Source of the DNA: Ehretia macrophylla
Taxonomy: Eukaryota; Streptophyta; Magnoliopsida; Boraginales; Ehretiaceae
DNA length: 64,000 nucleotides
Assembly: GCA_037974665.1 (NCBI GenBank)
Contig: CM075769.1
Span: forward strand, 24,206,139 to 24,270,138
Reading direction: 5' to 3'
Positions 5,405-63,969 of the stretch are shown in pieces. Position 1 is the stretch's first letter. Each line of letters opens with the position of its first letter. The translations under genes were made by a program, and so were the position numbers. Below the pieces are notes generated by a model. The model was not told the origin of the DNA, did not search any database, and was given only the letters and a program-made list of their open reading frames with translations.

Positions 5405-5431
5405 GTTAGATGACAAAGTAGGCCATCTAAC
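5405..5431 (-). other. CTACTTT-loop hairpin, Gypsy-1 3' LTR
   Basis: In the element's sense, GTTAGATGGC pairs with GTCATCTAAC over 10 bp around the loop CTACTTT, with one G-U pair that would be a mismatch on the other strand. The same hairpin is at 12836-12862 in the other LTR. Confidence 0.7.
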
Positions 5432-6262
5432 CGGACATGCATAATATACATAATTAAACTCTAAATTACTCATCAACAACTCACCATTCATCACTCGAAC
5501 ACTACCCAACCATCTAAAGGCATCGTTCAAGAAATTAAAGAATGACAACCTAAACTTCTAAAATTCATAACTTACAATCTACTAATCCAAACATTGCCAA
5601 ATCAGTTCCTATCACTCACCCATTCAACCTACTACATTAGCCCTCTCGGAAATCCACCATAACACCTCCAAATCATGCCCGATAACCCTAAAACCCTAAG
5701 ATGTCATGGCTGGATTTTCTGGATTTTCACACGAACAATGTAATCGAAAATTCGGCATTACAACAATGCTAACACGTAATTATCAAGTATTTAGAAATCG
5801 ACGGCAATCGATTTCGATCAACACAACTCATTTAATTCAACTTTGAACATTTTAATCAAAATTAAATACTTGGAAAATAAAAATTATGCTACATCCGACA
5901 GAAATTCGTAGTATTAGTATATAACGATCCCTAGCATGCAAGGAGCAATAATCTATCTTCAGATTTCAATTCTAACGGTTAAATTTTCATTTATGAGCAA
6001 AAACATAAAAATGACATTTTGAGATCTATAATTTTTCTCTCACCTTTGATGCGATACAAGCCTAGGAATGCGTGCTATGCGTGCCCAACAAGCAGAATCC
6101 AAGTCGGTGCGAAGTTTCACGGACAAAAACCAAGTTTTTCTTTGAAAAAATGGATTGAAAAGCTTTGAAAATTCTCTTTCTTTTTCTCCTTCTTTCTCAC
6201 GGCAATGTGTGTGTTTGTGGAGTGTGTTTTGTGTTGTGTGAGTGTGTGTTGATGACAAGAAG

Positions 6263-6270
6263 TATTTAAA
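6263..6270 (-). promoter_or_regulatory. TATA-like box in Gypsy-1 LTR
   Basis: TTTAAATA on minus is followed about 15-60 bases downstream by a CA-rich stretch. The second copy is at 13694-13701. LTRs carry the element's own RNA polymerase II promoter; the exact start site is not shown. Confidence 0.5.
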
Positions 6271-6819
6271 AGCTTGGTCAATTAAAAAAATGCAAAGTCA
6301 AAGTTAGTTTTAATTAGTATTTTTGTGTTTTTAATGACTTTAATTGCATTTTATTGCTCACCAAGTTAAAAATAATTATGCAACCCCCAAGATATCTCAA
6401 GTGGATTATTTTTAGGTGACAAAAAGTTTTACAATCCAACAATTTCACCCGAGTCGGCTTAAAACTCGATTTTCGCAAAAGTCGGTGTAAAAACCCTAAT
6501 AAATTCTTAAGCCGATTTTAAAACCGTTTTCATCAAACACAGGTCTATTAAAGTCCGTGGACTAGGTCTAGAAGGGTTAAAAAGACCAGTTTCAAAATTT
6601 TAGCGGACGTGTTTCGAAAATACTATTCACTGAAAATCGACGATAAAATTTCTGACTCCGTTTTTGATGAAAATTTCATGAATGCACATTTAGCACGTAT
6701 TAGGAGTATTGACATCAAAATTATAACTTTCTAGGTCCTATAGCACATAAACAGAACATATGCACGCAAAACGAGGTATAGCACGTAAAACGAGATAAGC
6801 AGGAAAGTGGGGTTTCACA

Positions 6820-6831
6820 TTCTCCCATCCT
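6820..6831 (-). other. polypurine tract of Gypsy-1
   Basis: AGGATGGGAGAA on minus directly abuts the 3' LTR start. A 7-bp hairpin (6838-6855) precedes it by six bases. Confidence 0.75.
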
Positions 6832-6837
6832 TATAGA

Positions 6838-6855
6838 AATTTCGTCCTCGAAATT
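6838..6855 (-). other. hairpin before the polypurine tract, Gypsy-1
   Basis: On minus, AATTTCG pairs with CGAAATT around the spacer AGGA; it would code for NFEDEI. The equivalents in Gypsy-2 (45539-45556) and Gypsy-3 (60461-60478) read AATTGCG and CGCAATT, with a compensating pair change. Confidence 0.65.
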
Positions 6856-6859
6856 CTTA

Positions 6860-11832: not shown

Positions 11833-11838
11833 CTTAAA

Positions 11839-14250
11839 TGTCACGCCCCAACTCGACCCCACCTACAATCAGTCAGGACGCAACTGAATTTCGGCGGCAT
11901 AACGATAGTAAATAGATTTCCGAGGTTCTAAACCAACCTCATAAAACATCATACATCCAGCAATTCCTCAATACAAACAACAACATACAACACAACCATA
12001 TTATACAATAAACCATCCTCGTTATACGCCTCCATTCCAACATGACATACAATACCTCAACCTTATCATACATTTCAAAAATAAGTTGAGACACAACTAC
12101 AACTTAACCATAGACAAAAGAAAGCCACTAAGTTAACATCGTTTGGATCATCATCTTTCAACATCTATTACAATAAGAACCACAAAGCATATAAAAGTCT
12201 ATTAAGCTAATATACATGACATTAAACAACATATAATCATGGATAAGACTCGGGAACATATGACTCGCCCACGTAAGGCACATTTTCCTCCTCAGGAGGC
12301 ACGTACCCGTAATCCGGCTCTGCAACACCTGTAAGCATGCAATAATAGAGAGTGAGCTTATATACATAAGCCCAGTGAGGATCCGATAGATCTCGACAGT
12401 ATTCACTATGCTCCTTGGATTTAGTCCTTTGAGCAAGTAAACACACAACAACAATAATAACATTATCATCACATAACTATATAACCATTCATTAAAGGAT
12501 ACTCTATTTGGTGTAGCTCCAAATGCCATCACGATCTCAACCGTTCTTCTTATAACTCTCCATTACTCACGCACCCGAGGTACCTCACTAGCCCCTCCCT
12601 CCATGACACCTCCGTCATGCGAGCTGGGGGTAGCCTATGGCAGTCATGCCGTTATCAACCTGACAGCCCGACGCTGCCCGAGAGGTGGCACACACATACC
12701 AAGACTCCATAATCATCAATCATCAATCAATCAATTGGGAGATCAGCAACGAAAGTGCCCGATTCCCGAACTCAATAATAATCAATCAATAACATCAATA
12801 TAACATCAATATTAAATTAAACAACAAACAACGTAGTTAGATGACAAAGTAGGCCATCTAACCGGACATGCATAATATACATAATTAAACTCTAAATTAC
12901 TCATCAACAACTCACCATTCATCACTCGAACACTACCCAACCATCTAAAGGCATCGTTCAAGAAATTAAAGAATGACAACCTAAACTTCTAAAATTCATA
13001 ACTTACAATCTACTAATCCAAACATTGCCAAATCAGTTCCTATCACTCACCCATTCAACCTACTACATTAGCCCTCTCAGAAATCCACCATAACACCTCC
13101 AAATCATGCCCAATAACCCTAAAACCCTAAGATGTCATGGCTGGATTTTCTGGATTTTCACACGAACAATGTAATCGAAAATTCGGCATTACAACAGTGC
13201 TAACACGTAATTATCAAGTATTTAGAAATCGACAGCAATCGATTTCGATCAACACAACTCATTTAATTCAACTTTGAACATTTTAATCAAAATTAAATAC
13301 CTGGAAAATAAAAATTATGCTACATCCGACAGAAATTCGTAGTATTAGTATATAACGATCCCTAGCATGCAAGGAGCAATAATCTATCTTCAGATTTCAA
13401 TTCTAACGGTTAAATTTTCATTTATGAGCAAAAACATAAAAATGACATTTTGAGATCTAGAATTTTTCTCTCACCTTTGATACGATACAAGCCTAGGAAT
13501 GCGTGCTATGCGTGCCCAACAAGCAGAATCCAAGTCGGTGCGAAGTTTCACGGACAAAAACCAAGTTTTTCTTTGAAAAAATGGATTGAAAAGCTTTGAA
13601 AATTCTCTTTCTTTTTCTCCTTCTTTCTCAAGGCAATGTGTGTGTTTGTGGAGTGTGTTTTGTGTTGTGTGAGTGTGTGTTGATGACAAGAAGTATTTAA
13701 AAGCTTGGTCAATTAAAAAAATGCAAAGTCAAAGTTAGTTTTAATTAGTATTTTTGTGTTTTTAATGACTTTAATTGCATTTTATTGCTCACCAAGTTAA
13801 AAATAATTATGCAACCCCCAAGATATCTCAAGTGGATTATTTTTAGGTGACAAGAAGTTTTACAATCCAACAATTTCACCCGAGTCAGCTTAAAACTCGA
13901 TTTTCGCAAAAGTCGGTGTAAAAACCCTAATAAATTCTTAAGCCGATTTTAAAACCGTTTTCATCAAACACAGGTCTATTAAAGTCCGTGGACTAGGTCT
14001 AGAAGGGTTAAAAAGACCAGTTTCAAAATTTTAGCGGACGTGTTTCGAAAATACTATTCACTAAAAATCGACGATAAAATTTTTGACTCCGTTTTTTATG
14101 AAAATTTCATGAATGCACATTTAGCACGTATTAGGAGTATTGACATCAAAATTATAACTTTCTAGGTCCTATAGCACATAAACAGAACATATACACGCAA
14201 AACGAGGTATAGCACGTAAAACGAGATAAGCAGGAAAGTGGGGTTTCACA
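11839..14250 (-). repeat. Gypsy-1 5' LTR
   Basis: It has the same length (2412 bp) and ends as 4408-6819, about 1% different by eye. It contains the CTACTTT hairpin at 12836-12862 and a TATA-like box at 13694-13701. Confidence 0.93.
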
Positions 14251-16387: not shown

Positions 16388-18896
16388 TGTGACGCCCAAG
16401 AGCATTGCTATGATTCATTAACTGTTGCATCTACTGTTTGTGCATTTTCGCTATGCATTTACTTGTTGCTTTTCTTGGTTACTATTCATTGTATTTTGCA
16501 AATATTTATTTTCTTCGAATTAGTATTTTTCTTAAATTATATTTATTGTTTTAGGAATGAGAAAAATATGCGTTTGAGTAAAATGCGTTAGGAAGGCTCA
16601 TTTAGAAAATATTTTATCGGTTAATGTGAATAGTGTTACGTAGTCTAATATTACCTTTGACCTAGCTAACATTTAATTGCACCTTTAGACTTATTTTAAA
16701 CTAGTTTGACTCACTTTATTGTCAACATACACATTTTTAAACATGACACAAAATATAATATATACCATTACACATAAGCATAAACTTTAGCTCATCAAAA
16801 CATTTAATAAAATACCACCCTTATCCCTCCCTGAACCCGTGAAGCAGCCAAGAGAAGAAAAGGAAAATTTACTCAACAAACCTCCAAGTTTTGACTATTC
16901 TAAGCTAGGACCACGTAAATTCGAGTGTGCTCTAGTCTCCTACGAGCCTCTACACGCATTTGGTGAGGGATTTTGCACTCCTTTGTGAATTTAAAATTTA
17001 TGCCATATTATGTATTTTCTAGATTTGTTGATATTGGTTTCAGTTATGATCAAATCTTGCTATATATGATGTATACATGTTGTAGAGACCAAGTTTATGC
17101 AATTGTTTCGCTTTTTAGACGGTTAAATTCGATAGTTTGATTTTAGGGCAGTGAATAATGATATTTTTTAGGGTTTTATGAAATTGTGCATTATAGCTCG
17201 ATTCCTTGCTTTTAATAGGTGTCTCAGATGTTAATAAAGATAGATTAATAGCCCCGTGAGGAGGAATTGCTTGAAACTTGGCTCAAACGCGAAATTGGTG
17301 ACTTTTAAAAAGGGGTTTCGGGGTTAATGCAAATCTGGGTTAATTTGGCATTCACATTTAGTGTTCTTAGGCTATATAGGTGCTAGATATGTTTTGCTAA
17401 ACCTCGGTTGAGTTCCAGTTAGGGTACGTGTAGTACAAACTCACAAAGGGGCAATCGGGGCTTTTATGGTAATCGCGGGTAATTGGGTAATTTTGAGGGT
17501 CCTAAGGGTACCATTAGGTACATTTAGAAGTATGGAATAGGTTTCTCGTGAAACTAGGACATTATCTTTCGTTTTGAAGTCAAATGGCTTAAGTTACAAA
17601 GGGGGAAAAATGGAAAATTGATTGTTTCATACATCTATTGCATTGTAGTTACTTATAAGATGGTTAAATGCACTTTTAAGTTTTTTGTGAGCTTTTAGTA
17701 GAGTTTCATGCGAAATATGTAATTTACCCCTTTATGTTCATTTAGTTGATTATATGCTATTTCTTATATTTTTAACTATCTTCGAGGGCAACCTACTTTG
17801 TTGTCCCTCATTCATTATATTGCTCTATATTATTGTTATATTGTCATTGTATCTAAGTGTATTGCATAGTAGTTGCGCAACCATATCATCGGGGCGAATG
17901 TGATGGGCCTCTTTGGGCGGTAGTGGGCTTGCCAGAGTTGGTGCTCTAGCTCCGTACCCTATTCCCTCACTCACCTGGTTCGAAGATTGTCATTGGGTGT
18001 TGGGTCGTAGGATTATCAGGGTACATCTGGAGTACACCCACTGGAGTATTTGGGGTTTATGCCGGCACGATGATCGAGGTTCGTGATTGAAGTCCAAGTG
18101 AAGACTGGAGTGTTGGGGTTAAAGTGAATCGTATCCTTTTAATGTGTGGTAACTTGTTGTTTCAATTGTTCTTTGGTTGTTAAATGCTTTATTTGTATTA
18201 ACTACTGCATTGCATGCCCCGGTAGACTATATCCCTCACTAGGCAATTGTGGTTGCTTATACCTTACTAACATGTTTTAGGAGGTGCAGTTGGAGAAGGA
18301 GTTGCCTTGATTGCTGTGTGCTATTGCTTGAGGTTGAGATGTTGTATGTAGATTATGTGAATATCTTGCTTGTATTATATTATGTTCTATTTTGTGCCTA
18401 TAGGCTTGTATATATTTGGAGTTGTTGAAGAATTATAATAGCTAGGTTAATGTATGGCTTTAATGGTAGTGGATTGTAATAGTTTATCTTTACTTTCCTT
18501 TATACTACTTGCTTGTGTGTTAATGAAAGTTAATAGTCATTTGGCTTTAGTTTATAAGAAAGTCTAATGGTTAATATAGAGTGGTATGATAAGCGGATTA
18601 AAAAGATAAGGTTTCTAGGAATGTTAAATGCATGCTTGTGTGTGTTTTCTATGTCTTGCTCAAGGCTCGGTCGGTCTTGAAACTGGGAATGTTGGGGAGA
18701 TGAAGCTGGTGATTGTTGTGGATGTTGGATTTTGTGAGGTTTGAGACTTCGTTGTGTGTTTACAGGTTTTGATTTGTCCTATAAATAGGGGAGACTCTGT
18801 CCGTTTTTCCTAAATTTTATGACGGGGTTTGGTAATGGGATGAGTTTAGATTGTTTAATAGAATTCCCCAATCTCGTGAGAGGTCGGGGTGTGACA
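16388..18896 (+). mobile_element. solo Gypsy LTR, + orientation
   Basis: It is 2509 bp, from TGTGACGCCCAAGAG to GGTCGGGGTGTGACA, with the duplication ATATA at 16383-16387 and 18897-18901. No coding region remains, so this is the product of recombination between the two LTRs of one insertion. It is related to the Gypsy-2 LTR. It holds the CTACTTT hairpin (17784-17809), GTTGCGCAAC (17872-17881) and a GGGTAC../..ACACCC inverted repeat (18019-18039). The target is an AT-repeat, so ATATA alone is modest evidence. Confidence 0.88.
17784..17809 (+). other. CTACTTT-loop hairpin in solo LTR 16388-18896
   Basis: GAGGGCAAC pairs with GTTGTCCCTC around CTACTTT, leaving one bulged T. It lies 1087 bases before the LTR end. 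Confidence 0.7.
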
Positions 18897-19055: not shown

Positions 19056-21453
19056 TGTCACACCCCAACTCGACCCCACCTACGATCAGTCAGGACACAA
19101 CAGAATTTCGACAGTATAACGACAGTAACACGGACATCAGGACCCTAAACCAACCCTTTAGAACATCATACAACCAACTTCAAAGATCAACAACAACTCC
19201 ACAACCATGTTAACAACATATAATGCAACCATATCCATATATTAAACATTCTTTCTTCAATTCATCCATAAGTTATACGCCTTCGTTCCAATATCATACA
19301 TAGGCTATATCATACATTCGCAAAATAGATTACAAGCCAGTTCAGTAATCTAATCATGTTCAAAAGGAAGGCTACTAAACCAGTTTTATATAAGCCTTTA
19401 TCTTTAAGTAAGTTATACAATACAACATATTACAAAAACTAAGACAAACTCATGGAAATGACTCCGACACATAAGACTTGTCCACGTAAAGCACAATCTC
19501 AGCCTCCTGAGGCACGTACCTGTAATCCGGTTCAGTAACACCTGCTTGCAGATAACAAATGAGAGTGAGCTTATATAAAACAAGCCCAGTGAGGATTCGA
19601 TAGATCTTTTAAAAGCATTTACTATACCCCTTGGAAATCATCCTTTGAGCAGTAAACACACAATGAACATCAATATCAATATAAGTACAACAATAACAAG
19701 AACTAATCAATAAGGATACTCTAGTTGGTGTAGCTCCATACGCCATCACGATCTCAACCATCTTCTTGTAACTCCCTATTACTCACACACCCGAGGTATT
19801 TCATCTAGCCCTTCTCTCCATGGCACCTCGGCCTATGCGAGCTGAGGGTAGTCTATGATAGTAATGCCGTTATCAACCTGATAGCCCAACGCTGCCCGAG
19901 AGGTGGCACACACTATCAAGACTCATGACAATAATAATAAACATTCATATCACGGGAGGACAACAAAAGTAGGTTGCCTATCTCCCAGCATCATCAATCA
20001 TCAATCAATTAACAACATTTCAACAACATAACATCAATTAATCAATTAATAACTCAACAACTAAGTTAGATGACAAAGTAGGCCACCTAACTTACATGCA
20101 TTAAACCACACAACCAAACCCGAATCTAACCAAAAACAACCCAAGATTCAACCACTCAAACACTACCCAAACAACCAAAGACAATATTTCAACATTTAAA
20201 GAAAGGCTACACAAACTTCCAACAATCATAACTTACAATCTACTAATCCAATAACCTCCAAACCACTTTCTATTATTAACCCACTCATGCATCTACATTA
20301 GCCCCCTTGGAACGCAACCATATCCCACCTAAAACAAGCCCGACTACCCTAATTCCATAATACACTAAAGCTGAATTTTTTAGACTTTCACCACGAAATC
20401 ACAATCAAAATTTTGGCATTACAACATTACTAATCCGCATTTAACAAACTTTTAGAAGCAATAAGCAAGCAATTTCAACCACTACAACAACAATTAATCA
20501 ACAATGAACTCAAAATCCAATTTTAATACCCGAAAAATTGAAATACATGCTACTACTATTCAAAACTTATAGAAACGCACATAAACGATCCTTGGCATCT
20601 ACTGAGCAATAATCTAAAGACAAATTAACATTTCATTGGATAAAAAAAAATCAATTATATGAAAATGGCACAAAATAGCATTTTGAGATCTAGAATTTTT
20701 CTCTCACATTTGATCCGAAGTAAAGCTAGGAATACATGCAATAGGTTCCCAACAAGCGAAATCTAGCTCGGTTTGAAAAGATTCGGATAAAAACTAAGTT
20801 TTCTATGGTAAAATCACATTGAAAAACTTTGAAATTTTTCTCTCTTTTTCTCCCTTAACCTCATGGCAATGTGTGTGTGTGTTTGTGTAGTGTTTACTTT
20901 GTTTTTAATGTGTGTTGATATAATATAAGCAAAAGTCAATCAAATGAAAATGGTCAAAGTTGATTTTCAAGTCTTTTAATTAGTATTTTTAGTCTTTTAA
21001 TTGTTTTCTTGACTATTTTGCCCACAAACATGCAATTAACACTTAGACTATTTTTAGGTAATTTATTTTAGGTGACAACAATTTTCATTTGCACACATTA
21101 ACACCCGACTCGGTTAAAAATTCGATTTTTGCAAAAGAAAGTGTAAAAACCTTTAAAATTTCTAATCCGATTTAAAATCAGTTTTAATCAGACACAGGTC
21201 TATTAATATTCGAGGACTAGGTTTTAAAATGCTAAAAAGACCAGTTGAAAAATTATAGCGGACGTGTTTCAAAAATACTATTCACAAAACTCGACGATAA
21301 AATTTCTGATGCCGTTTTTGATGAAAATTTCATGAATGCACACATAGCATGTAATAGGAATATAAATCATAGAATTAGCGTATTCTAACTCATATAACAC
21401 ATAAACAGTCCAAATCATGCAATTCTATGCAAATGTAAAATTTGGGTTTCACA
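19056..21453 (-). mobile_element. solo Gypsy LTR, - orientation, Gypsy-1 family
   Basis: It is 2398 bp; on + it runs TGTCACACCCCAAC to TTGGGTTTCACA. The flanks ATCTA (19051-19055) and GTCTA (21454-21458) agree at four of five bases, as expected for a duplication with one later change. It is clearly more diverged from Gypsy-1 than the two Gypsy-1 LTRs are from each other. A TATA-like element (TTATATTATATCA on minus) is at 20917-20929. It carries two hairpins of the CTACTTT type (19954-19986 and 20063-20093). Confidence 0.85.
19954..20093 (-). other. two CTACTTT-type hairpins in solo LTR 19056-21453
   Basis: At 20063-20093 the minus strand gives AAGTTAGGTGGC pairing with GTCATCTAACTT over 12 bp, two of them G-U, around CTACTTT. 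At 19954-19986 a looser stem (CAAC/GTTG, AGG/CCT, GGG/CCC with bulges) surrounds CTACTTTT. Confidence 0.65.
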
Positions 21454-39519: not shown

Positions 39520-39685
39520 GGTTGCGCAACCATAGTGTCGGGGCGGATGTGTTGAATATCGGCTGGGCGGCAGAGGGCTTGCCGGTGGATATTCAAACTC
39601 CGTACCCTATTCCCTCATTCGCCTGGTCCGGAGATTGCCAGGGGATGTTGGGTCGTAGGATTCGGGGTACATCCGGAGTACACCC
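39520..39685 (+). other. palindrome GGTTGCGCAACC and GGGTAC inverted repeat
   Basis: The 12-bp perfect palindrome is at 39520-39531. At 39665-39685 GGGTAC and GTACACCC pair around a TCCGGA core. Both recur at the same relative places in the solo LTR at 26592-30315; in the one at 56131-59481 (minus) the palindrome has one changed base; in the one at 16388-18896 both are slightly altered. Confidence 0.6.
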
Positions 39686-45652: not shown

Positions 45653-48063
45653 TTGACTTTGTGACTACTATTCACTCCGTTTTTTAAATGCTTTCTATTA
45701 GTTAATTAGCATTTTTATTAAATCATATTAATTGTAAAAGTAGTGGGAAAAATGTGCTTTTGAGCTTAAGACGTTAGGAAGGCTCGTTTAGAAAATAATT
45801 TTAGAAGTCAAGTGAATAGTGTTACGTAACTAACTTAGGTAATTAATTAGCTAGCATATATTTTTACATCTAAGCTCGTTTTGGAGCTAGCAACGCGCAT
45901 TTTATTAGACCACTTAAGCACCCTAAGGACCCCACCTCAACTCAAACCCTTATTATATCACTTAAACACACAAAATGCAAAAGAAAAAAAAAAATAAAAG
46001 CTGAAGAGCAGCCCCAAAAAACCCGACAGCCCCTCTTTGCTTATGGGAGCATTTTTCCATCTTCAACTCTCCAAATCAAGCCAAGCCAAGCCTTGAGCAA
46101 GTGGATTAGGGTGTCTTCAAGCCTCCTAGGTGTTCCTACGCGTAGTGGTGAGGGATTTCATGGCTTAATTTCGCATTTTAAAATAATTGCTATTTTCTTG
46201 ATTTGTTAGAAATGATGTTTAATGCTATTGCAAGGCTCAAATAAGCTTATATATGTTGTGTACACATAGTAGAGACCACTTTTATGCTATTGTTTCATGA
46301 ATTAAACGGTAGAAATCGATAGTTTGATTCTTAGGGTGAATAGTGACGTTTTTTTTAGGGTTTTGTGTAATTGTTCGAATTGGCTTGAATTAATGCTTCT
46401 AATTGATGCCTTAGGTGCTAGTGAAGATAGTTAAATAACCCCGTGCACTTGCATTGCCCTTAAATCGCCTAAAAATGGAAAATAGCCGACTTTAAGTTGG
46501 GGCTTTCGGGGTTAATGCGATTCCGGGTGGATTCGGGCTTCAATTCTAGTTTCCTTAAGCTACCTAGGTGCTATAGATGCCTTGATATCCCTTAGTTGAA
46601 GTCCGGACAATGTAGTAGTAGTTTAAAGCCAAAAGAGGAAAATTGGGGCTTTCGGGGTAAACGCGAGCATTTGATTGAGTTCGAGGGTTGAAAGGGTACC
46701 TTGGGGGTTAATTAGAAGGTAGGGAGAGTTTCTTTTGAAAATGACATCATTAACTTGGGTTTGGAAGAGAAATAGTATGTAAAATAAAGGGGTTTAAGTG
46801 CAATTTCGTTTGTCTCACATTTCTAAACCCACGGCATGACTTCATGAGTGTTTATATATGATTTTAAATTGATTTGGAGCTTTTGAAATGATTCTATGCT
46901 TATATGGTATAAGTTCATTTGTAAACTGCTTATTAACTTCTATATTTGCTTCTATCCTAATTGCAACGAGGTCAACCTACTTTGTTGATCCTCATATGTG
47001 TTAATGCTTATATTATTGCTATTAACTTGCCATCGTTAAGTGCATTGCATAGTGGTTGCGCAACCATAGTGTCGGGGCGGATGTGTTGAATATCGGCTGG
47101 GCGGCAGAGGGCTTGCCGGTGGATATTCAAACTCCGTACCCTATTCCCTCATTCGCCTGGTCCGGAGATTGCCAGGGGATGTTGGGTCGTAGGATTCGGG
47201 GTACATCCGGAGTACACCCATTGGAGTGATTGGGGTTATGCCGGCTTATCGTGATCGTGCTCGTGGTTCGTGGATCGTGATTGAAGACCAGTGAAGATTG
47301 GTGTATAGGGGATTGTTGAAATGTATCCTTTTAATTGTGTGGTTATTTAAGTTATCATTGATTCTTAAATTGTTAAAGTGTTATTGTTGTGTAATTGTAT
47401 TATCTGTTGCATTGCACGCCCCGGGACTATATCCCTCACTGGGCAACAGTGGTTGCTCATACCTCGATATCTGTTTCAGGAGACGCTGAGGGTGATCCCC
47501 AGCTTGTTGATTTAGTTGAGGAAGAAGAAGTTCAGATCGAGCCTTTACCTTAGTTGCTGTGTCTGATAACTTGAGGTGGTTAATGATTTTTGTTGCTTTG
47601 GGGAAGACTCCTCTGATTACTTTATGTACTATTTTGTAGCCCAAGGGCTTTGTATATGTTTGTTGTATAAGTCGAAGATTAGATGGTTGGGTTGTAGCTT
47701 TGAAAGTCTATGAACTGTAATAACTTTTATTCTTGCCTTATTTCCTTGCATGCTTGTGAGTGGATGGTTAATGTAGAATGCTTTACTCTTTAAGTTGTTA
47801 TATTGATTTCCTAGAATGTAATGATTATAAGTCTATGCTGACAACCAGTTCTTGCATGCTTGTGTGTTTTGGTGATATTGTGTACTATAAGGCTCGGATG
47901 GCCTTATAGCTTTATTGTTTAATTAAATTAAGCTTGTATGTGTTGTAGAGACCTTGTTTAAGTGTTTACAGGTTTTTAGAATGTCCACGGTACAGAGGAG
48001 ACTCTGTCCGTGTGTCGGGTCCGGACTTAACCTTTAGCTTGGGGGTTGGGTCGGGGCGTGACA
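45575..48063 (+). repeat. Gypsy-2 3' LTR
   Basis: 2489 bp, almost identical to 38042-40529. It repeats all the elements noted there, including the hairpin at 46968-46993 and the palindrome at 47054-47065. Confidence 0.95.
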
Positions 48064-51792: not shown

Positions 51793-54416
51793 TGTCATAC
51801 CCCAACTCGACCCCACTTATGATCAGTCATGACGCAACGGAATTTTAGCAATATAACGTCTGTAATATGGACAACAGGCTCTAAACCAACCCTTTATAAC
51901 ATCACACAACCAACTCCAAATTTCAACAACAACTCCACAACCATTCATCAACATTCAACACAATACATTAAACAATCATATGCCATACCAACCACAAGTC
52001 ATAAGTCTCTGTTTCAACAACATACTACAAGTTATACTATACATATGCATACTTGATATAAAACTAGACTAGCAACCTACTCATAATCCAAAGTAAGACA
52101 ACTAAACTAGCATTATAGTTTCACTATCTTTATAACATCTTATACAATACAAACATCAAAGCAAATACAATACAACTTGTTCTAATTTACAAGACAACAA
52201 AAAAAAGAACTCCAGCCAAGACATCATGGATAAGACTCTTGCACAATTGACTCGTCCACATAAGGCTCATACTCAGTCTCCTGAGGCACGTACCCTAACT
52301 CTAGCTCGGTAACACCTGAAAGTCAGCAAAGAGGGTGAGCTTATACAACACAAAGCTCAGCGAGGGTTCAAAAGATGTTTTAAAAATATTTACTTTACCC
52401 CTTGGGAAATCATCCTATGAACAATAACACACAATAAATTTCATTAACATCAACATTTCAATTCAAGCCACATAAATAACCATTCAATTTAGAAAGGATA
52501 CACTAGTTGATGTAACTCCATATGCCATCACGATCTCAACCAACTTCTTGTAACTCCCATTAATACATACCAGAGGTACCTCATCTAGCCCCTCCTTCCA
52601 TGGTATCTTCACCTATGCGAGCTGGGGGTAATACATCATAGTCATACCATTATCAACCCGACAGTCTGATGCTGCCCGAGAGGTGACACACACTATTAAG
52701 ACTCATGACAATAATAATAAACATTTCATATTCTGAGAAGACAACAAAGTAAGTTGTCCTCCAGAGCAACGTCAATCAGTTATCAATACCTCAATCAACA
52801 TAATATCAATTAAACAACTACGACAACTAAGTTAGATGACAAAGTAGGCCACCTAACTTATCACACATTTCAACATGCATTCAATCCCGAACCTACTCAA
52901 CAACAATCCAAGAAACAACTACACAAACACTACCAAACAACTAAAGACAACATTTAAGCATTTTAAAGAAATACTACACAAACTTCTAAAATTCATAACT
53001 TACAATCTACTAATCAAACAACCCCCCGAACCTTTTCCTATTACTCAACCACACATGCAACTACATTAACCCCCTCGAAAACCAATCAAAAGCCACTCAA
53101 AATAAGCCCAACAAGCTAAAAATGGCAATGCATACATGGCTGATTTTTCAGACTTTTGCTATGGCATTCAAATTAAAAATTTGGCATTGCAATATTACTA
53201 CACAATAATTAACAAACCTATAGAAGCAATTACAACTTAATTCCAACCACTACAACAACAATTATTCAAATATAAGTCAGATAATCAATTTAAATACCTG
53301 AAAAATAAAAATACATGTTGCTACTGTTTAAAATGGCTACAAATGCATATAATTGGTCTTTATCATCTACTAAGCAATAATCTAACATCAATTTAACAAA
53401 ATAGCAACTATAAATGCATCAACCAAAAATCCAACTCAACTTTAAAATAATGAACTATATTTTTCCCTCACCTTTGATGCAAAAAAATGCTAGAAATGTG
53501 TAGAATGGATGCCCAACAAGTAATTTCAAGCTTTGAATAAACTGATTTGGACTTGAAATGAGTTTTTTCTTCAAAAATTAGCTTTGAAACCCTTTGAAAA
53601 ATATTTTATTCTTCTCCCATGGAAGCTCACGGTCTTCTGTGTGTTTGTGGTGTCTTTTGTGTGTTTTTTTGGCTGAAATGTTTGTTAAATAAGTTAAAAT
53701 GCAAGGTCAAAGTAATAAGTCTTGGTCAAAGTTGGCAATTTTTGCTATTTTAGTTCATTTTTGCTTAAAATAGACTAGTTAAACTATCTAACTTATATAA
53801 TATATTTAGTAGGACTATTTTAGTTGAAAACATTTATATATAAGCATATATATACATACAATTAATTTCCAATACATATTTTTGCAAAAGAAGATGAAAA
53901 GTAATATTAATTGTTTTTCAAATGTCTTTTAAATGCATTTTTCAATTGTGCCATTCTAGAAATATTTAAGATGATATATAATTTATATGTAATATATACT
54001 AGGTCAACAAAAGTTAAAGCAAGAATATATTTATATGTAATGGATGTAATATAATTAATATATATAATATTAATTTACTATTTTTGCTTAAAAACGTTAA
54101 TTTTTACCCGAAAAGTCTGTTTTAAATTCCTAACTTATTTCAGAAATATTTTTTATTAAATCACTGGTCCTTTAATAATGGGGAACTAGTTTTTAAAACG
54201 TTTAGAAGACCAATTCAAAATTCTAGCTGATGTGTCTTAAAATACTATTCATAAAACTAAACGATAAAATTTTCAATGCAGAAGTAAAAATTTCATGAAT
54301 ACTCATTTATCATGTAATAGAAGTGATAATCACATAATTATCACATTTTAATTCAAATAACATATAAACAAGTCAAAACACGTAATTGCAAATAAGAGCA
54401 AAATCGGGGTCTCACA
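51793..54416 (-). mobile_element. solo Gypsy LTR, - orientation, Gypsy-1 family
   Basis: 2624 bp; on + it runs TGTCATACCCCAACTC to CGGGGTCTCACA, with the perfect duplication AATAA at 51788-51792 and 54417-54421. It is more diverged from Gypsy-1 than 19056-21453 appears to be. It carries two CTACTTT-type hairpins (52735-52761 with loop TTACTTT, and 52828-52860). Confidence 0.9.
52735..52860 (-). other. two CTACTTT-type hairpins in solo LTR 51793-54416
   Basis: On minus, at 52828-52860, TAAGTTAGGTGGC pairs with GTCATCTAACTTA over 13 bp (two G-U) around CTACTTT. At 52735-52761 GAGGACAAC and GTTGTCTTCTC pair with a bulge around TTACTTT. Confidence 0.68.
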
Positions 54417-55747
54417 AATAAGTTTAGCAAAAGTTTTGTGTCAATTTGTATAGCTATCCAGAAATTCCAAGTTCTCTGCAATGAATTTTCTTGACTGATT
54501 TGATATAGTAAACGTTGTTTGTGGCTGAATATTGGATATGTTATACTAGAGAGGTAGTGGCACAAATTGTCTTTTATGTGCATTTCCTAATTCCATGGTT
54601 AAGTTGTTCATTAAAATCAATTTCAGTGAGTTACTTGCTAAAAGTGCTACACTAGACAGTTTGTGCAACTTATGTTCTTAAGGGCATAACTCAGTGAATT
54701 TGACTTCAAATTGAGCTCCGTTGTTTCTAGGTCAAACCACAACCTGTACTCAGAAGAAATGGACTACAAACAGCAATACAACATACACGAATCACATACA
54801 ACTCTTTTTTGACATAACGATCCAAATTCTTAAGGCCATCCGAGCCTTCAACCATAGCAAGATAAACATTCAAGCAATGGACTTAAACAATACTAACCCT
54901 ACACAAATACTAGCTTATCATACCACTCTAATATCCCTTAATCTAAGCTATCATAGTTATAAAGATATATTATAAGTCATTCACATAAAATTTAACTTTA
55001 ATACATCTTTTACATAACTTTACATACAAGATCAACCAAAATAGAACACATATACCATTCACTAACCACACTTTACATTTTATTACATAAAATTTTCTTC
55101 CTCTGTCATACACTTAAACTTGTTCTTCTATTTCTTGAGAAGTAGTCCCTGCCTCCCTGTAAAATTGTCATTGAAAAGGGTGAGCATACATTTATGCTCT
55201 GTAAGGGAGGGAATAAACGGGAAAGCATTTCGCAATGGTTTTCGTGCAATGCATATAAGACATGTAAATAACATTTAACTAAAAATTATAAGCAACGCGG
55301 AAAGGTAACACTAACATGATAAGCATTAAAGTATTAAAAACGCTAAATAAACACTTTAATATGAGATCGCTAACCCCATGGAACGCTCCGTCCATGTGGG
55401 CTCACTTCTTTTGCGCTATGTTTCTCTTTCCCCTTGACTCTTCACTTGTCGACTTCACTTATCGCTCCGCTAGGCATACTCTGAATGTATCCCGATTCCT
55501 ACGACCCATGTCCATTGAATGCTCCGTCCATGCGACTAGGGAATAGTCCACGGTGGGTTAGCATCCACTGGCAAGCCCTTTGTCGCCCAGTGAATGATCA
55601 CCACATCTGAGCCGACGCTTAAGTTTGCAACCTTTGCTATGCTGAATACTTGTTAGCACTGTTAGTTCGCTTGAGACAGTTTATAGCACATCACAAGTTG
55701 CCACATTGAAGCACTTAAACATTTGAGTATAATAAATGCACGCAAGT

Positions 55748-55773
55748 GAGAAGTGACAAAAGAGGCCACTCTC
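55748..55773 (-). other. CTCTTTT-loop hairpin in Gypsy-3 LTR
   Basis: On minus GAGAGTGGC pairs with GTCACTTCTC (one bulge, two G-U) around CTCTTTT. The copy in the other LTR is at 62617-62642. It is the most changed member of the CTACTTT hairpin set. Confidence 0.6.
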
Positions 55774-56130: not shown

Positions 56131-59100
56131 TGTAACACCCCGTTTCCTCACGAGACCGGAGCCCCGATCCAAATCCCGAGGTCACAAAAAATGAGAAAAA
56201 ACAGACACAATTTTCCCTGTTTCTAGGCCTATCCACAAACCTGCACGCAGAAGAAATGGTCCACAACAACAATATACCAATATTCATAACTTCCAAGTCT
56301 TTAAGGCCATCCGAGCCTTTCTACCATATTAAAATAAAACATACAAGCAAGCATTTTCTTTAGTTACTGAACTATTATAGTCATAATTTCAATTATCGTA
56401 CCGCTCTAATCTTTTCTACTTCATTTTCTTAGATTTTAAGCTATCATCCAATAGTCATTTAACCCCATACAAGCATGCAAGTTACTAGGCAATAAAGTAA
56501 AACATTAAAGGTATTACAGGCCAATCACTAACTACTTAATCACACACGACTTTAATACAATCCTCCAAACCAAATACATTTGCATATAAGACCTCTATGG
56601 TCTCAAATAGATTACAAGCCAAGCTATTCAATTACTTTACATAAATTCACTTATAATAACCAACTAAAGTTAAAACATCCACTCAAGAAGATTCCTGAGC
56701 CTTCTCCTTCTCAACCTCCGAAGGAACTGAACCTGAAAGGGTTAGAAAGAGGGAGTGAACAAACAATGTTGCTCAGTGAGGGAAGGAAACAGTTATTCGG
56801 GGAGTTTTGAAAATTCTTTTGTGCAATGCAGCAACCAACAATAAAGTAAACTAACAATACAAAACTAGTATACAAATTAATAAACTAACAAATTTACATC
56901 AAAGGAAGAAAAACAACCACGATAAGACAAGTACATAGAGTAACCACGAGAATACAATCAAGGTAACTCTCCAAGGAACAAGGGCCCAAGCGAGAGTTAC
57001 TCAAAAGGATACAATGTTGATCACGAGCACGAACCATGAACCACCAGCCACGAACCATGAACCACAAACAAGATATATTGATAAAACAATAATGATAATG
57101 ATAATGATAACGATAACGATAACAATAAGCCAGCATCCTCTATAACTCCAGTGGGTGTACTCCGGATGTACCCCAAATCCTATGACTCAGCTCTCCCAGG
57201 GCGGTATCCCTAGCAAGAGAGGGAATAGCTACGGAGGATGAATAACCACTGGCAAGCCCGTTGCCGCCCAGTGATGACCACCACACTGTGCTGAATGGTT
57301 GTGCAACCACGACAACGATAACGAGAAATATAAGTCACAAGATATGAGATTATACTCGATGGTATCTATTTTCCATGGAAAACCGATTTGATAATCATGC
57401 AAGGTAAACCCATACAAGACAATTTACAAACATTACAGGGAATATCACAATGTAAGCAAAATAACTAACATTTAAAGCATGGGAATATTTCACATAACCA
57501 ATATACAACAGATAAATGTGAATAAGATGCAACTCCCTCACCTCTAGAAAGACAAACCTGCAGGAACCTAGCCAAGAACCCCTCCAAAACATCTCCAAAA
57601 GCACCAATTCCCTTCAATTACCATTACATAATACAATCAACCATATGCATAAGAAATTATACATGCAATTCAATTCATCAATGGTGCTAAATAATAAAAT
57701 AGGATCACACTCACCTAATTCCTCATTCCTATATTATTAGCATTCCCCAATAATCATTACCTATCATTACATTCTACTCGATTGGCAACTAACCACTCCG
57801 ATTTCCACTCAACTACTAAAGCTACACATGAACCACTCTTTAGACATAATTGGCCTCAATCAACTCACGCATTTCAATCATTTCTACCCCTTCGATTAGA
57901 GTACATAAAGAGTAGCATTAAACCCATTCTATTCATGCTCAACTAACTAGTCTATATACTCAAATTAACAATCAACCATACAATGCTCATTAACTAACCC
58001 TTTATACTCAATCAACTCTCTACAAGTTCAAATCACAATCTAGCAATTCCAAGCATTAATCTAGTCATTCTACCACTTATGGAACCTACTACAAGTATCA
58101 AACGAGCATTTAACCATCAATTCAACAAAATACTATTCATTTGGCCAACTTTCTCAAGCTACCCACTCCATTTGAGATACGAGACTTGCAAACCAACTTC
58201 ACCACTCACTTCTAGACACTTTATGACGTGTTTCTATACTACGAAATCTCAATTTAACCCACACAACTAACATAAAATCCTGAAATTTCAATGCCATGAA
58301 TACACCACAATCATTCTCTAGCCTATCTAAGACCATACAACTCACCCAAACGCGCCCGGTCAACACTTTGTTCGATTGACCCCTTTGGTCCAAACTCAAG
58401 ATTCTCTAATTCTAAACATGTTCTAAACAATTTAACATCACATTTATCCTCAATATCATTTATGGCACCTAGCACAAGCATTAAAACACAATTTAAATCA
58501 AAAACTCCAAATTATGAAGCTTTTACCACTCAATACTATTCATCTTCTTCCTAAATTGTCCAAACACCATTTATAACCAATGCAATTGCTAAATAACTAT
58601 AAAATATTTTTCTACAAACTTATTAACAAGCAACATAAACAATTTGAACCAAGTGTAACATCAATTAAAGCAATTCAGGCATATACCCAGTTACTATTCA
58701 CTTCAAAAATAAAATACGTTAAAATTAAATTCTAAAACGGTATAAAGATGCCATAACACATAGATAACAAGGAAAAAAAATACTAATTTAGACATACAAT
58801 GCAAGAATCATGTGATTTAAAGTGATTTTAAAAATGGCCCTCACAAATTTTTTTTATTCCGAAACGCGAAAAACAATTAGTAGAAAGGTGGAGCACGTCG
58901 AGATGAGTCCGAACGTGTTTGAGTTGGCCCGAGGAACCTTCGTTTTGACCTTGAAAGAGCAATTTTTGCAAGAAAAATACTATTCCCGTATGTAGCATTT
59001 TTGGCTGACTTTGGGCTTTTTTTGAGCATTTTTTGAGCAATGTTGACTATTTTTTGTCTTTATATACTTTAAGTGAAGTCAAACTTGGTCAATGGAAGAC

Positions 59101-60455: not shown

Positions 60456-60460
60456 AAACA

Positions 60461-60478
60461 AATTGCGCCCTCGCAATT
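60461..60478 (-). other. hairpin before the polypurine tract, Gypsy-3
   Basis: AATTGCG / AGGG / CGCAATT on minus, five bases before the tract. It is kept although the element has no coding region. Confidence 0.65.
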
Positions 60479-60599
60479 CCTTATTTGCAAAGAATACTAC
60501 TTCGGACTGTCATATTTTTAGCCCAAGTCTTCCACATAAAGCACTGAGAACTGAACCTTGATTATCTACTGCTGACGGCCAAATAGAAGTACTAGTGGA

Positions 60600-61035
60600 A
60601 CCCCCAAATAATAATCTTTCATTAAAATTTTCCCAAAGAAAAATACTAACACATTTGTTAGAAGGATACCAATAAGAACCTTAGTAGATTACCAAAGAAA
60701 ATACCACATAAGAAATCCCAAAATATAGGTGCCAAATAAAGGCTCCAAGTGAAAATACCAATCCAGAAGTCCGAATAAGAATCCAAAGTATTATCTCCGA
60801 AGAAAATACCAATGAGTAATGCCACAAGCCAAAGTAAAATACCCGAGTACTGATTAAGGATCTCATACAAGAATGTCGATACTGAATATCATGTAGAAAT
60901 ACCAAATAAAAACCTTAGGCAAGAATACCGATTAAGAGTCCAAACTAGAATACCCAATAATATCCAAGTGAAATCTTCGAACAAGTATGCCGAATATGGA
61001 CTCCAATTCAGTTTATCAAAAATAGTAGCAAGGAA
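60600..61035 (-). repeat. degenerate 12-13 bp repeat array in the Gypsy-3 interior
   Basis: On minus, more than twenty units of 10-15 bases end in TTGG, TCGG or TAGG. They often alternate TATTTTCTTTGG-like and ATTCTTATTCGG-like halves, giving a rough 24-26 bp period. Open frames here are a by-product of the repeat. Confidence 0.6.
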
Positions 61036-61484
61036 GGATACCATCTATTAACCTTGATAGATATCTGGTTAGTTGCCCCTTGTATTTGTTGATCCAAGTC
61101 TTTAGAAGATCTGATGTTGGCTATCTCTCTTTAGGGGAAAGAATTTTTTTACCAATGCAAGGGGGTAATGCATGTATGCAGTCAAAACCACTTAAAGTAA
61201 ACCTTTTAATACACATATTAGTACCAATAGCTAAGACAATTAATTGTTCATGAATTCACTTATGTACACATAGTCTCATAATGCACGTACCACATACTCC
61301 ACATATATTGCACAAATATCTACCACATAGGTGCATTCAAAATCACACAAGGGTACATATTCATTCAAGGATACATAAGCCTTGCATACAAGCACACACC
61401 TACTCAAAACACACTTCACATGCACGTATTCGGGGTTCACAACCCGACAGACCTAGGACCCTATCTCGGCTGAAAGCTATCTAA

Positions 61485-61496
61485 GCTCTAATACCA
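61485..61496 (-). other. primer binding site of Gypsy-3
   Basis: TGGTATTAGAGC on minus, two bases inside the 5' LTR, has one change from the Gypsy-1/2 site TGGTATCAGAGC. Confidence 0.85.
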
Positions 61497-61498
61497 CC

Positions 61499-63969
61499 TG
61501 TAACACCTTGATCCCTCACGGGACTAGGAATCCTATTCATTCCACTAATAACAACCCCCAGGCATAAAAAATGAGGAAAAACGAATGGAGTCTCCCATGT
61601 TTCTAGGCCAAACCACAACCCGTACTTAGAAGAAATGGACCACAAACAGTAATACAACATACACAAATCACATACAACTCTCTTTTGACATAACCATCCA
61701 AGTTCTTAAGGTCATCCGAGCCTTCAACCACAACAAGATAAACATTCATGCATTGGTCTTAAACAATACTAACCCTACACAAACACTAGCTTATCATACT
61801 ACTCTAATATCCCTTAATCTAAACTATCACATTTATAAAGATATATTATAAGCCATCCACATAAACTTTAACTTTAATACATCTTTTACATAACATTACA
61901 TACAAGATCAACCAAAATAGAACACATATACCATTCACTAATCACACTTTACATTTTATTACATAAAATTTTCATCTTCAGCCATACACTTAAACTTGTT
62001 CTTCTATTCCTTGAGAAGTAGTCCTTGCCTCATTGCAAAATTGTTATTGAAAAGGGTAAGCATACATTTATGCTCAATGAGGGAGGGAATAAACTAGGAA
62101 GCATTTCACAAATGGTTTTCATGCAATGCATATAAGACATGTAAATAATATTTAACTAAACATTATAAGCAATGCGGAAAGGTAACACTAACATGATAAG
62201 CATTAAAGCATTAAAAACACTAATAAACACTTCAAAAAGGATATCGCTAACCCATGGAACGCTTCGTCCATGCGGGCTTACTTCTCTTCCACTATGTTTC
62301 TCTTTCCCTTTGACTCTTCACTTGCCGGCTTTACTTATCGTTCTACTGGGCGTACTCCAAATGTACCCCGATTCCTATGACCTACGTCCATGGAACGTTA
62401 CGTCTGTGCGACTAGGGAATACTCCACGGCAGGTTAGCATCTACTAGCAAGCCCTCACCGCCAAGTGAATGATCACCACATCCAGGCTTAAGTTTACAAC
62501 CTTCGTTACGCTGAATACTTGTTAGCACTGTTAGTTTGCTGGAAAGAGTTTAAAGCACAAAACACGTTGCCACATTGAAGCACTTAAACATTTGAGTATA
62601 ATAAATGCACATAAGTGAGAAATGACAAAAGAGGCCACTCTCATGCACATGATCATTCACATGCTCTAAGAATTTTAAACATGCGCTAAATTACTTTAAA
62701 CTACTTGACATGCTATTATGAGATTCTTTAGTTCATGTACGTGGCATTCATTCTCGAACAACTCACTTAGCATGCACGGGATTCTAAAGCTCATAAACTC
62801 ATTAAGCATATTCACTAAGCTAGAATCACTAAGCTAACACAAGTAGAACACTTAAAACTCTTAACTAAAACATTTCTAACTTCTACCAAAACATAGCATT
62901 TTTACTTAATGCTAATATCTATCATCTCCAACATGCTCGGAACAAGGGGTAGGGTCAAAAATTGTATGGCAAATGAATGTCAACCCACAAGGCCCGTTAG
63001 GCCGAACCTTATTCCTACACGGCCAAAAAAATACACATACACACACATACACACACACTAGTTCCAAACCTAATCTATCCATTTTAGGCACTTAGCTAGC
63101 TATACAAACATGTATTTAACCTCAATTAACCACTAGAACACTCCATTTGCGCTTAAACACAACTCTTTAAGCAATTTTATTATTCATTATCTTCCACCTT
63201 GCATACATATACAAAGCTCTAACTACACATGTGCAAATAGCTAAAAAGTCTACTCTACAACATCTTTAGCTAGCATTTTATGTAGTAGAAGCTATAAAAC
63301 AACATTTATCCACAATATCACATTTTCATTACAACTAGAAATTAAGAAAAAAATGCAAACAATAATGTCTTCCTCACCTTGTGTATGCTAGAGATGGAGA
63401 AAATATGCAAGAAAACACCTTGATCCTTCTCAAAATTGCTCTGATATGCAAAGAAAAACCAAGCCCTAGCTAATTTTCTTTTTTTTTTCTTCCTTTGAAC
63501 CCAACGGTTCTTGTTGTTGTTTTTTCTCTTTTTTTCTTTTTGTGTTATGTTTTAGCTAGTATGTATATGTATGTATATATATTAGATGTATATGTGTAGG
63601 CTAATAAGTGGGTTGGGCTTATATGATAAGGTTTGGGCTTGGTTTATATAACTAAAAACTAATTAAAGTTTAAATGGCCCAAAGATAAACTAATTGCTAC
63701 TATTAACTCGGGGACACAAACTATTTTCTATCTCACGCTCGGAGCATGCAATGCACAGATTTCTAATGAACAAAAACATTGAATGTGATGTATAATGAAG
63801 AAAAAATATAAAATTCAAAAAATAAAATAGTTACAAAAATCATCCCGGACACATATTAAACATAAAATTTCAACAAACTAAAGCAAGATTTAAGTCAAAT
63901 AAAAGTAAATATGCAAATAAAACAATTAATTAAATCAAATTAAAAGTCTCTCCAGGCTCGGGCGTCACA
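61499..63969 (-). repeat. Gypsy-3 5' LTR
   Basis: 2471 bp; on + it runs TGTAACACCTTGATCC to CGGGCGTCACA. A TATA-like GTTATATAAACC on minus lies at 63641-63652. Hairpin at 62617-62642. The adjacent ACTAA at 63970-63974 would be one copy of the target duplication; its partner was lost. Confidence 0.88.

What the first reader, a model, noticed from the sequence alone, without database searches (positions are those of the whole stretch)
5405..62642. LTR hairpin with a fixed CTACTTT loop and changing stems in many Gypsy LTRs
Seen: about ten sites in Gypsy-1, Gypsy-2, Gypsy-3 and four solo LTRs, in both orientations (5405, 12836, 17784, 20063, 29294, 39434, 46968, 52828, and variants at 55748 and 62617). 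The loop stays CTACTTT or nearly so, while the arms are unrelated: GTTAGATGGC/GTCATCTAAC, GAGGGCAAC/GTTGTCCCTC, GAGGTCAAC/GTTGATCCTC, GAGAGTGGC/GTCACTTCTC. G-U pairs fit only the element's own sense strand. The site is always about 1.0-1.1 kb before the LTR end and downstream of the TATA-like box where I found one. Inference: a conserved RNA element in the long transcribed leader, perhaps for packaging, dimerisation, translation or a protein contact. I do not know of a description, but could not search.
Basis: partly seen in the sequence, partly recalled or inferred. Interest (0 to 1): 0.75.

Follow-up and report, generated by a model that had tools for sequence, protein, structure and literature searches.

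The report
Conserved RNA hairpin in retrotransposon LTRs
Several related plant jumping genes in this window carry, in the middle of their long terminal repeats, an RNA hairpin whose loop letters stay nearly the same while its stem letters change in matching pairs, which suggests that something recognises the loop.

Summary
The hairpin is real and far above chance. All ten reported sites are present; two more were found, second hairpins about 100 nt after the first in LTRs B and C. Of 11 LTR copies that I identified, 10 (7 of 8 lineages) carry it; LTR H does not. Of 19 CTACTTT occurrences in the window, 8 are loops closed by at least 8 pairs, against 0.06 on average in 100 shuffles. Stems fall into two classes sharing the loop; inner pairs change on both sides with pairing kept, and G-U pairs fit the sense strand. 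Downstream lies a conserved, probably structured core.

The RNA-element reading is supported; a 5'-leader position is not shown. TATA-like strings 27-36 nt before the loop occur in 4 of 7 lineages (aligned in D, E, F; also A), so a promoter role stays possible. The hairpin is in genomic RNA wherever transcription starts, because every part of an LTR is transcribed at one end or both. Function is inferred: a protein-read cis signal of genomic RNA (packaging) first, translation second. No plant genome could be searched, so generality is untested; the one outside chromovirus LTR seen (1.9 kb of it) lacks the hairpin. Nine paper searches listed no description.

The parts
5405..5431 (-). Hairpin class I, LTR A1 (3' LTR of Gypsy-1), loop CTACTTT
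12836..12862 (-). Hairpin class I, LTR A2 (5' LTR of Gypsy-1), same as A1
20065..20091 (-). Hairpin class I, LTR B (lone LTR 21453-19056)
   Evidence: LTR ends
19954..19986 (-).
   Evidence: matched by model R2 although not in its training set, E=0.00044
52831..52857 (-). Hairpin class I, LTR C (lone LTR 54416-51793)
52736..52762 (-).
   Evidence: in the training set of R2
17784..17809 (+). Hairpin class II, LTR D (lone LTR 16388-18896)
29294..29319 (+). Hairpin class II, LTR E (LTR ends not found)
39434..39459 (+). Hairpin class II, LTR F1 (5' LTR of Gypsy-2)
46968..46993 (+). Hairpin class II, LTR F2 (3' LTR of Gypsy-2)
55748..55773 (-). Hairpin class I with loop CTCTTTT, LTR G1 (3' LTR of Gypsy-3)
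62617..62642 (-). Hairpin class I with loop CTCTTTT, LTR G2 (5' LTR of Gypsy-3)
39547..39693 (+). Structured core about 104 nt downstream of the hairpin, LTR F1 (second copy 47081-47227)
   Evidence: alignment A1 and model R1; pair counts
29409..29555 (+). Same core, LTR E
   Evidence: trained R1
17898..18047 (+). Same core, LTR D
   Evidence: trained R1
55464..55606 (-). Same core, LTR G1
   Evidence: trained R1
62340..62481 (-). Same core, LTR G2
   Evidence: trained R1
57145..57286 (-). Same core in LTR H, which has no CTACTTT-type hairpin upstream

Best explanation
The feature is a selected RNA hairpin of the element's own (sense) RNA. A stem of 9-10 pairs, whose letters differ between lineages, presents a nearly fixed pyrimidine-rich loop of 7 nt (CUACUUU; variants CUCUUUU, UUACUUU and an 8-nt CUACUUUU). 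It lies 100-170 nt ahead of a conserved, probably structured core near the centre of the LTR. Shown here: the hairpin, its conservation above flanks, pair-preserving changes, more sense G-U than A-C, a second hairpin with nearly the same loop in two LTRs, and the core. Follows from established LTR replication: the site is in every genomic RNA whether it falls in U3, R or U5. Inferred: a nearly fixed loop on a changeable stem is read by a protein, and the likeliest reader acts on genomic RNA as cargo (element Gag or a host protein in the particle), so that hairpin and core act as a packaging or RNA-selection signal. A weak pointer to cargo rather than translation: Gypsy-3 keeps the hairpin although this copy has only 1053 nt between LTR and LTR and no gag or pol frame.
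For: 8 of 19 CTACTTT in hairpins versus 0.06. In A/B/C the 27-nt hairpin is 97.5% identical, flanks 62% and 69%, LTR mean 66%; in D/E/F 92.6%, flanks 56% and 72%, mean 51% (E given as a 2.6-kb stretch without known ends, which lowers the mean); 0.08% and 1.0% of windows of that length are as conserved. Inner five pairs: 40 of 40 cells paired in 8 distinct rows, covariation score 0.786, shuffled mean 0.429, 0 of 500 reach it; slid structures pair in at most 77.5%. Permuting whole hand-aligned 3' arms among 8 hairpins reaches the observed 55 of 56 paired cells in 8 of 20,000 trials. 13 (or 11) sense G-U against 1 A-C. Sense fold z-scores -1.9 to -4.4 in 10 of 10 hairpins with 30-nt flanks. Core pairs formed in 91.4% of cells against at most 43.8% when slid. 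AAAGTAG, the loop's complement, is absent from the A2 LTR-plus-leader stretch and LTRs B, C, D, and occurs once in F; E, G, H not searched. Gypsy-3 internal region: longest stop-free stretch 77 codons, and the six longest match nothing in Pfam at E<=1.
Against: All comparison is within one 64-kb window; lineages are related, the two stem classes may be one old contrast, and the controls do not correct for relatedness. In one search two measures do not stand out (pairs with both-sided change: 39 of 500 shuffles as high; further pair types: 475 of 500), and the core is only slightly above shuffles (91.4% versus 89.1%; both-sided pairs 4, as many as in one slid version). LTR H keeps the core but not the hairpin. 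The one outside LTR seen (1.9 kb in L124) has no R2 match up to E=10 and no R1 match. A/B/C share no common fold with the others over the core region (joint fold energy -6.6). Sense folds of D, E and F are slightly less stable than antisense. The TATA-like string close upstream in A, D, E, F could put the start site inside the hairpin. No binding, packaging or transcript data; Gypsy-3 may be a recent deletion.
Confidence: 0.38

Rival explanations
1. Translation or host-factor site: hairpin and core help ribosomes reach gag across a long leader, for instance through a polypyrimidine-tract-binding type protein reading the CUUU part of the loop.
For: If the RNA starts upstream, 1455 nt with 35 ATGs (longest upstream frame 43 codons) lie between the Gypsy-2 hairpin and gag, so plain scanning would be hard. 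PTB RRM1 binds a hairpin with loop UCUUU found in viral IRESs (PMC7192611, abstract).
Against: The ATG number is no more than composition gives (shuffled mean 41; 281 of 300 shuffles have 35 or more). Splicing, reported for BARE1 (PMC3735527, passages), could remove them. The start site is unknown. Hairpin kept in an element without coding frames.
Confidence: 0.23
2. R-region or 3'-end function: the hairpin lies at or near the transcript start, or in U3, and acts in strand transfer, polyadenylation control or RNA stability, as TAR-like or poly(A)-type hairpins do.
For: Central LTR position at nearly constant distance from both ends; TATA-like strings just upstream in A, D, E, F. Conservation in long retroviral R regions has been linked to stem-loops (PMC3601003, passages).
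Against: No start or poly(A) site located; one search shows only scattered near-matches to poly(A) signals; B, C and G have no TATA within 60 nt.
Confidence: 0.18
3. DNA-level promoter feature: a TATA box with an initiator-like loop sequence, the arms being a protein-binding dyad.
For: TATA 27, 28, 27 and 36 nt before the loop in A, D, E, F, aligned among D, E and F, against 11.5% of LTR positions with TATA 22-40 nt upstream; CTACTTT fits a YYANWYY initiator pattern (pattern recalled, from no call).
Against: B, C and G (3 of 7 lineages) have none, and the G loop CTCTTTT does not fit the pattern. A DNA dyad does not favour G-T over A-C, yet 11-13 against 1 is seen. Arm letters change freely, unlike a DNA-binding site. 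Raised from an earlier 0.08 because the alignment of TATA among D, E and F had been misread.
Confidence: 0.13
4. Conserved only by common descent without selection, the stems being an old inverted repeat that happens to pair.
For: Lineages are homologous and few.
Against: Conservation peak, both-sided changes with pairing kept, second hairpins in B and C.
Confidence: 0.05

Closest known systems
Retroviral and Ty3 leader signals (Ty3 mapped in PMC11381356)
   Same: Structured cis-acting RNA in an LTR retroelement; Ty3 is a mapped Metaviridae RNA whose dimer depends on a 5' palindrome (passages)
   Different: Here the loop is nearly fixed, pyrimidine-rich and not self-complementary, stems vary, and the site is in the LTR centre about 1.0-1.14 kb before LTR end or PBS; no functional data. 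That paper also says the Ty3 packaging sequences are not precisely defined
Conserved Hairpin Site of fungal GalEa Copia elements (PMC5445492)
   Same: Conserved hairpin described from sequence in LTR retrotransposons (passages)
   Different: Lies directly after the 5' LTR where the PBS is missing, arms conserved and loop variable: the reverse of this case
Sirevirus repeated palindromic motifs (PMC2829016)
   Same: Conserved dyad motifs inside plant LTRs (passages)
   Different: Copia elements; CGG-CCG core, many copies, upstream of TATA, viewed as regulatory
BARE dimerisation and packaging signals (PMC3735527)
   Same: Plant LTR retrotransposon stated to have conserved signals of this kind (passages)
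   Different: Copia element; no sequence or structure comparison was made
UCUUU-loop hairpin bound by PTB (PMC7192611)
   Same: Short pyrimidine loop on a hairpin read by an RRM protein (abstract)
   Different: Another loop sequence, in animal virus RNA; the likeness is only of loop composition

Membership tests
Plant chromovirus (Ty3/gypsy) | gag-protease-RT-RNase H-integrase order in the host element | tested here: met
   Gypsy-2 frame 40877-45652: gag, RVP_2, RVT_1, RNase H, H2C2, rve (rve below its cut-off, 23.2 of 32.6 bits), SH3_Tf2-1 in order
Plant chromovirus (Ty3/gypsy) | Integrase C-terminal chromodomain | tested here: inconclusive
   Pfam Chromo E=0.00068, 20 bits, below the 25.1 cut-off
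Plant chromovirus (Ty3/gypsy) | Initiator-Met-type primer-binding site next to the 5' LTR | tested here: met
   TGGTATCAGAGC at 40536(+) and 11832(-); TGGTATTAGAGC at 61496(-) in Gypsy-3; the tRNA identity is recalled
Tekay/Del clade | Placement by RT tree | not tested
Dimer initiation hairpin | Self-complementary loop | tested here: not met
   Loop CTACTTT, reverse complement AAAGTAG (the sequence itself)
Packaging signal | Needed for, and bound during, RNA packaging by Gag | not testable with these tools
   No binding or particle data
TAR-type hairpin | Located at the very 5' end of the transcript | not testable with these tools
   No mapped 5' ends; TATA-like strings close upstream in 4 of 7 lineages
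GalEa Conserved Hairpin Site | Directly after the 5' LTR in place of the PBS | tested here: not met
   Loop lies 1.0-1.14 kb before LTR end or PBS, and a PBS is present
Any Rfam 15 family | Match at gathering score | tested here: not met
   0 matches in the window

The most novel reading that the evidence does not exclude
These plant chromovirus LTRs carry a modular RNA recognition system: one or two hairpins with a nearly fixed CUACUUU-type loop on interchangeable stems, followed by a conserved core, together forming the genomic RNA selection signal of the elements, read through the loop by Gag or a captured host RNA-binding protein.
Probability: 0.2. Interest if true: 0.8.

Novelty: new variant of a known kind. 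Interest (0 to 1): 0.5.

Why it matters
LTR retrotransposons can make up to 90% of some plant genomes (PMC12786077, start of abstract), yet how their RNA is chosen for packaging or translated seems little studied: a word search of that 2025 review's main text finds no 'packaging signal', 'dimeriz', 'hairpin', 'stem-loop', 'IRES' or 'secondary structure'. A nearly fixed loop on changeable stems is a concrete target for mutation and pull-down, and a model to look for such elements and their non-coding riders.

Tried and rejected
Kissing or pseudoknot partner: the loop's complement is absent from the A2 LTR-plus-leader stretch, B, C and D and occurs once in F; E, G and H were not searched. Anticodon-loop mimicry: a pyrimidine stands where a purine normally follows the anticodon (recalled rule); ARAGORN finds no tRNA. 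Rfam: nothing at gathering score. Ribosome shunt: no short frame ending at a constant distance before the stem was seen by eye; not scored. DNA cruciform: disfavoured by G-U polarity.

Outside material. Own genome not held. Viral contigs: two sequence patterns gave 0 stretches, one gave two unrelated stretches, RT peptides gave no relative, and a loose pattern gave 120 stretches, 80 listed; a blastn of the window against the loci held then gave no match at E<=1e-3. RT protein in phages: no match; in plasmids: 3 records below 60% identity. Two LTR stretches in plasmids: no match. Genome contigs: 8 contigs with a related RT. R1 found nothing at E<=5 in loci L123-L142; in 7 of the 8 source genomes (one not held) it gave one match at E=0.38, taken as chance, but only 150 of 186-595 first-look candidates were scored in six of the seven. 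R2 found nothing at E<=10 in 19 loci with default filters; unfiltered on L124, L137 and L143 its best was E=0.88, in the coding part of L124; in the same 7 genomes it gave 3 weak matches in 2 genomes, E 0.18-0.27, not examined further and taken as chance, with candidates capped at 150 in three. A stem-and-loop scan of L123-L143 found no exact CTACTTT loop; seven looser ones (two loop mismatches) are taken as chance.

Papers: nine searches listed nothing describing this hairpin; each lists only the best 10-20 of up to 353 papers, and the library is open-licence PMC only. One search covered the letters themselves; its six hits look unrelated by title.

LTR A keeps a pairing arrangement at the second-hairpin place but not the loop. 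Rows dropped: B and E in the permutation (arms identical to C and D); L125, L127, L128, L129, L130 left out of the RT alignment, L127 and L128 after the error. On re-checking I had misread the TATA alignment and had overstated the ATG count; one search mends both, and the odds of the promoter rival were raised and of the best explanation lowered by a little.
Full report
What was checked. All ten listed sites hold the hairpin on the element's own strand. Stems of 9 or 10 pairs close a 7-nt loop, CTACTTT at eight sites and CTCTTTT at the two Gypsy-3 sites. A covariance model made from nine hairpins (R2), run over the window with filters off, gives 12 matches at E<0.001 and then nothing better than E=0.4. 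The C one was in the training set; the B one was not and scores E=0.00044.

Against chance. CTACTTT occurs 19 times on both strands; 8 of 19 are loops closed by at least eight pairs, and 100 dinucleotide shuffles in 2-kb pieces give 0.06 on average and 2 at most. Among all 7-mers CTACTTT has the most hairpins of nine pairs or more (8); the next have 3. The 8 lie in 6 lineages, which are related.

The elements. Gypsy-2 (LTRs 38042-40529 and 45575-48063, plus) has one frame with gag, protease, RT, RNase H and integrase in chromovirus order, a primer-binding site TGGTATCAGAGC at 40536 and a weak chromodomain match (E=0.00068, below Pfam's cut-off). Gypsy-1 (LTRs 14250-11839 and 6819-4408, minus) is similar with broken frames. 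LTRs B, C and D stand alone (ends, which prints the 3' ends one base too far). The ends of E were not found. Gypsy-3 (G2 5' LTR from 63969, PBS at 61496; G1 3' LTR from 60442) has 1053 nt between PBS and 3' LTR; its longest stop-free stretch is 77 codons and the six longest match nothing in Pfam at E<=1. LTR H (from 59481, minus) lies inside G1; its end was not located.

Position. Loop to LTR end is 1014 to 1104 nt in seven LTR copies and 1137 nt to the PBS in G2; LTR start to loop is 1372 to 1569 nt in those seven (the end distances one base long). TATA stands 27, 28, 27 and 36 nt before the loop in A, D, E and F and aligns among D, E and F; B, C and G have none within 60 nt. The background is 11.5% of LTR positions for TATA 22-40 nt upstream, 14% for a looser pattern. 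Whatever the start, the hairpin is in genomic RNA: U3 is transcribed at the 3' end, U5 at the 5' end, R at both (established LTR replication).

Structure evidence. Two stem classes share the loop: class I is A, B, C, G; class II is D, E, F and the second hairpins of B and C. From the loop outward, pair 1 is C-G in all ten; pair 2 G-U or A-U; pair 3 G-C or A-U; pair 4 U-A or C-G; pair 5 A-U, G-U, G-C or U-A (arms aligned by hand, one 3' base set aside as a bulge in D, E, F, G). On the alignment of nine hairpins (8 distinct) the five inner pairs are formed in 40 of 40 cells; three pairs have both-sided changes (39 of 500 shuffles as high), cells with such a change are 9 (0 of 500), the covariation score is 0.786 (0 of 500), and the number of further pair types does not stand out (475 of 500). 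Between A/B/C and G, whose loops lie 152-166 nt ahead of the core or its aligned counterpart (positions), pairs 6 to 9 differ on both sides with one exception in outer register that depends on the bulge. Between D/E and F, where alignment is safest, pair 5 changes on both sides (to U-A in F; in D and E G-U, or G-C if the bulge is drawn as). Permuting whole 3' arms among eight hairpins reaches the observed pairing in 8 of 20,000 trials. None of these controls corrects for relatedness. Sense G-U pairs number 13 (11 with the other bulge) against one A-C, in the irregular outer stem of B's second hairpin. Sense folding z-scores run from -1.9 to -4.4 in ten of ten; sense is more stable than antisense in seven of ten and slightly less in D, E and F.

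Conservation. In A/B/C the hairpin is 97.5% identical (LTR mean 66%), and 0.08% of windows of that length are as conserved; another conserved stretch lies 90-180 nt upstream there. In D/E/F it is 92.6% (mean 51%, E given without known ends), and 1.0% are as conserved, because the hairpin there begins a conserved block of about 500 nt with dips. Inside the block a core of about 145 nt has a consensus fold of three helices: pairs formed in 91.4% of cells against at most 43.8% slid, but 89.1% in column shuffles (1 of 500 as high), 4 pairs with both-sided changes (29 of 500 shuffles as high, and one slid version also has 4), many pairs invariant. So the core is well conserved, and its fold is likely but less proven than the hairpin. 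Model R1 recovers its six training sites and the F2 copy and nothing else in the window or loci L123-L142. A, B and C do not share a common fold with the others over this region (joint energy -6.6). H has the core but no such hairpin. So 10 of 11 LTR copies that I identified, 7 of 8 lineages, carry the hairpin.

Outside the window. No plant genome is held. Eight contigs in bacterial assemblies encode related RTs and most look like plant contamination. Only L124 reaches far into an LTR (5587 to its end at 7497). It has no R2 match there up to E=10 with filters off and no R1 match; it has a TATAAATA string at 6065. The hairpin is therefore not shown to be general in chromoviruses. Searches of the seven source genomes held gave only weak matches with capped candidate lists.

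What it most likely does. A nearly fixed loop on a stem whose letters change, present twice in some LTRs, is the pattern of a protein site rather than of pairing with a partner nearby; no shared complement exists in the stretches searched. The loop is not self-complementary, so it is not a dimer-initiation loop. I favour a signal read on genomic RNA as cargo, because it persists in an element without coding frames and because in Ty1, Ty3 and HIV-1 sequences for dimerisation and packaging lie in the structured 5' end (PMC11381356, passages, which also says the Ty3 packaging sequences are not precisely defined). Translation is the main rival; the 35 ATGs between the Gypsy-2 hairpin and gag are no more than composition gives (shuffled mean 41) but would still hinder scanning if the RNA starts upstream. 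A promoter role (TATA plus start at the loop) is less likely but not excluded. None of these is tested.

Novelty. Conserved hairpins in LTR retrotransposons are a known kind (GalEa, passages; Ty3). A nearly fixed loop with changing stems in the centre of plant chromovirus LTRs was not seen in the listings of nine paper searches, which cover open-licence PMC papers only.

Noticed in passing
39520-39531, 47054-47065, 29381-29392 (+): A 12-nt perfect palindrome GGTTGCGCAACC lies between hairpin and core in F and E; D has AGTTGCGCAACC and H GGTTGCACAACC. It is a better candidate for dimer initiation than the reported loop.
   Followed up: no
61495-60443 (-): Gypsy-3 has LTRs, a PBS (TGGTATTAGAGC) and a purine-rich tract before the 3' LTR but no gag or pol frame between (longest stop-free stretch 77 codons): a non-coding element that may depend on others.
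   Followed up: partly
59481-about 56130 (-): LTR H is inserted inside the Gypsy-3 3' LTR (G1), whose two parts match one continuous stretch of G2.
   Followed up: partly
39547-39693 (+) and homologues: The core's first helix holds an almost invariant GGGCTTGCC stretch (GGGCTTGCT in G2); its third helix presents a 7-nt loop (ATCCGGA in F) between GTAC arms, and G1 changes one pair there on both sides (G-C to A-U).
   Followed up: partly
4-mer TATA at 27-36 nt before the loop in LTRs A, D, E, F: A TATA-like string close ahead of the hairpin, aligned among D, E and F, absent in B, C and G; it may mark the start site.
   Followed up: partly
L123-L130: Eight bacterial assemblies or MAGs in the species collection hold contigs encoding gypsy-type reverse transcriptase related to this element; most look like plant contamination, L129 and L130 may be other sources.
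   Followed up: partly
L124 6065: The chromovirus LTR in this contaminant contig has a TATAAATA string about 480 nt from its start, further upstream than the hairpin position in this window.
   Followed up: no
792-1523 (+); 32077-35567 (+): A Copia-type gag frame, and a broken LINE-like element (DUF4283, zinc knuckle, reverse transcriptase).
   Followed up: no
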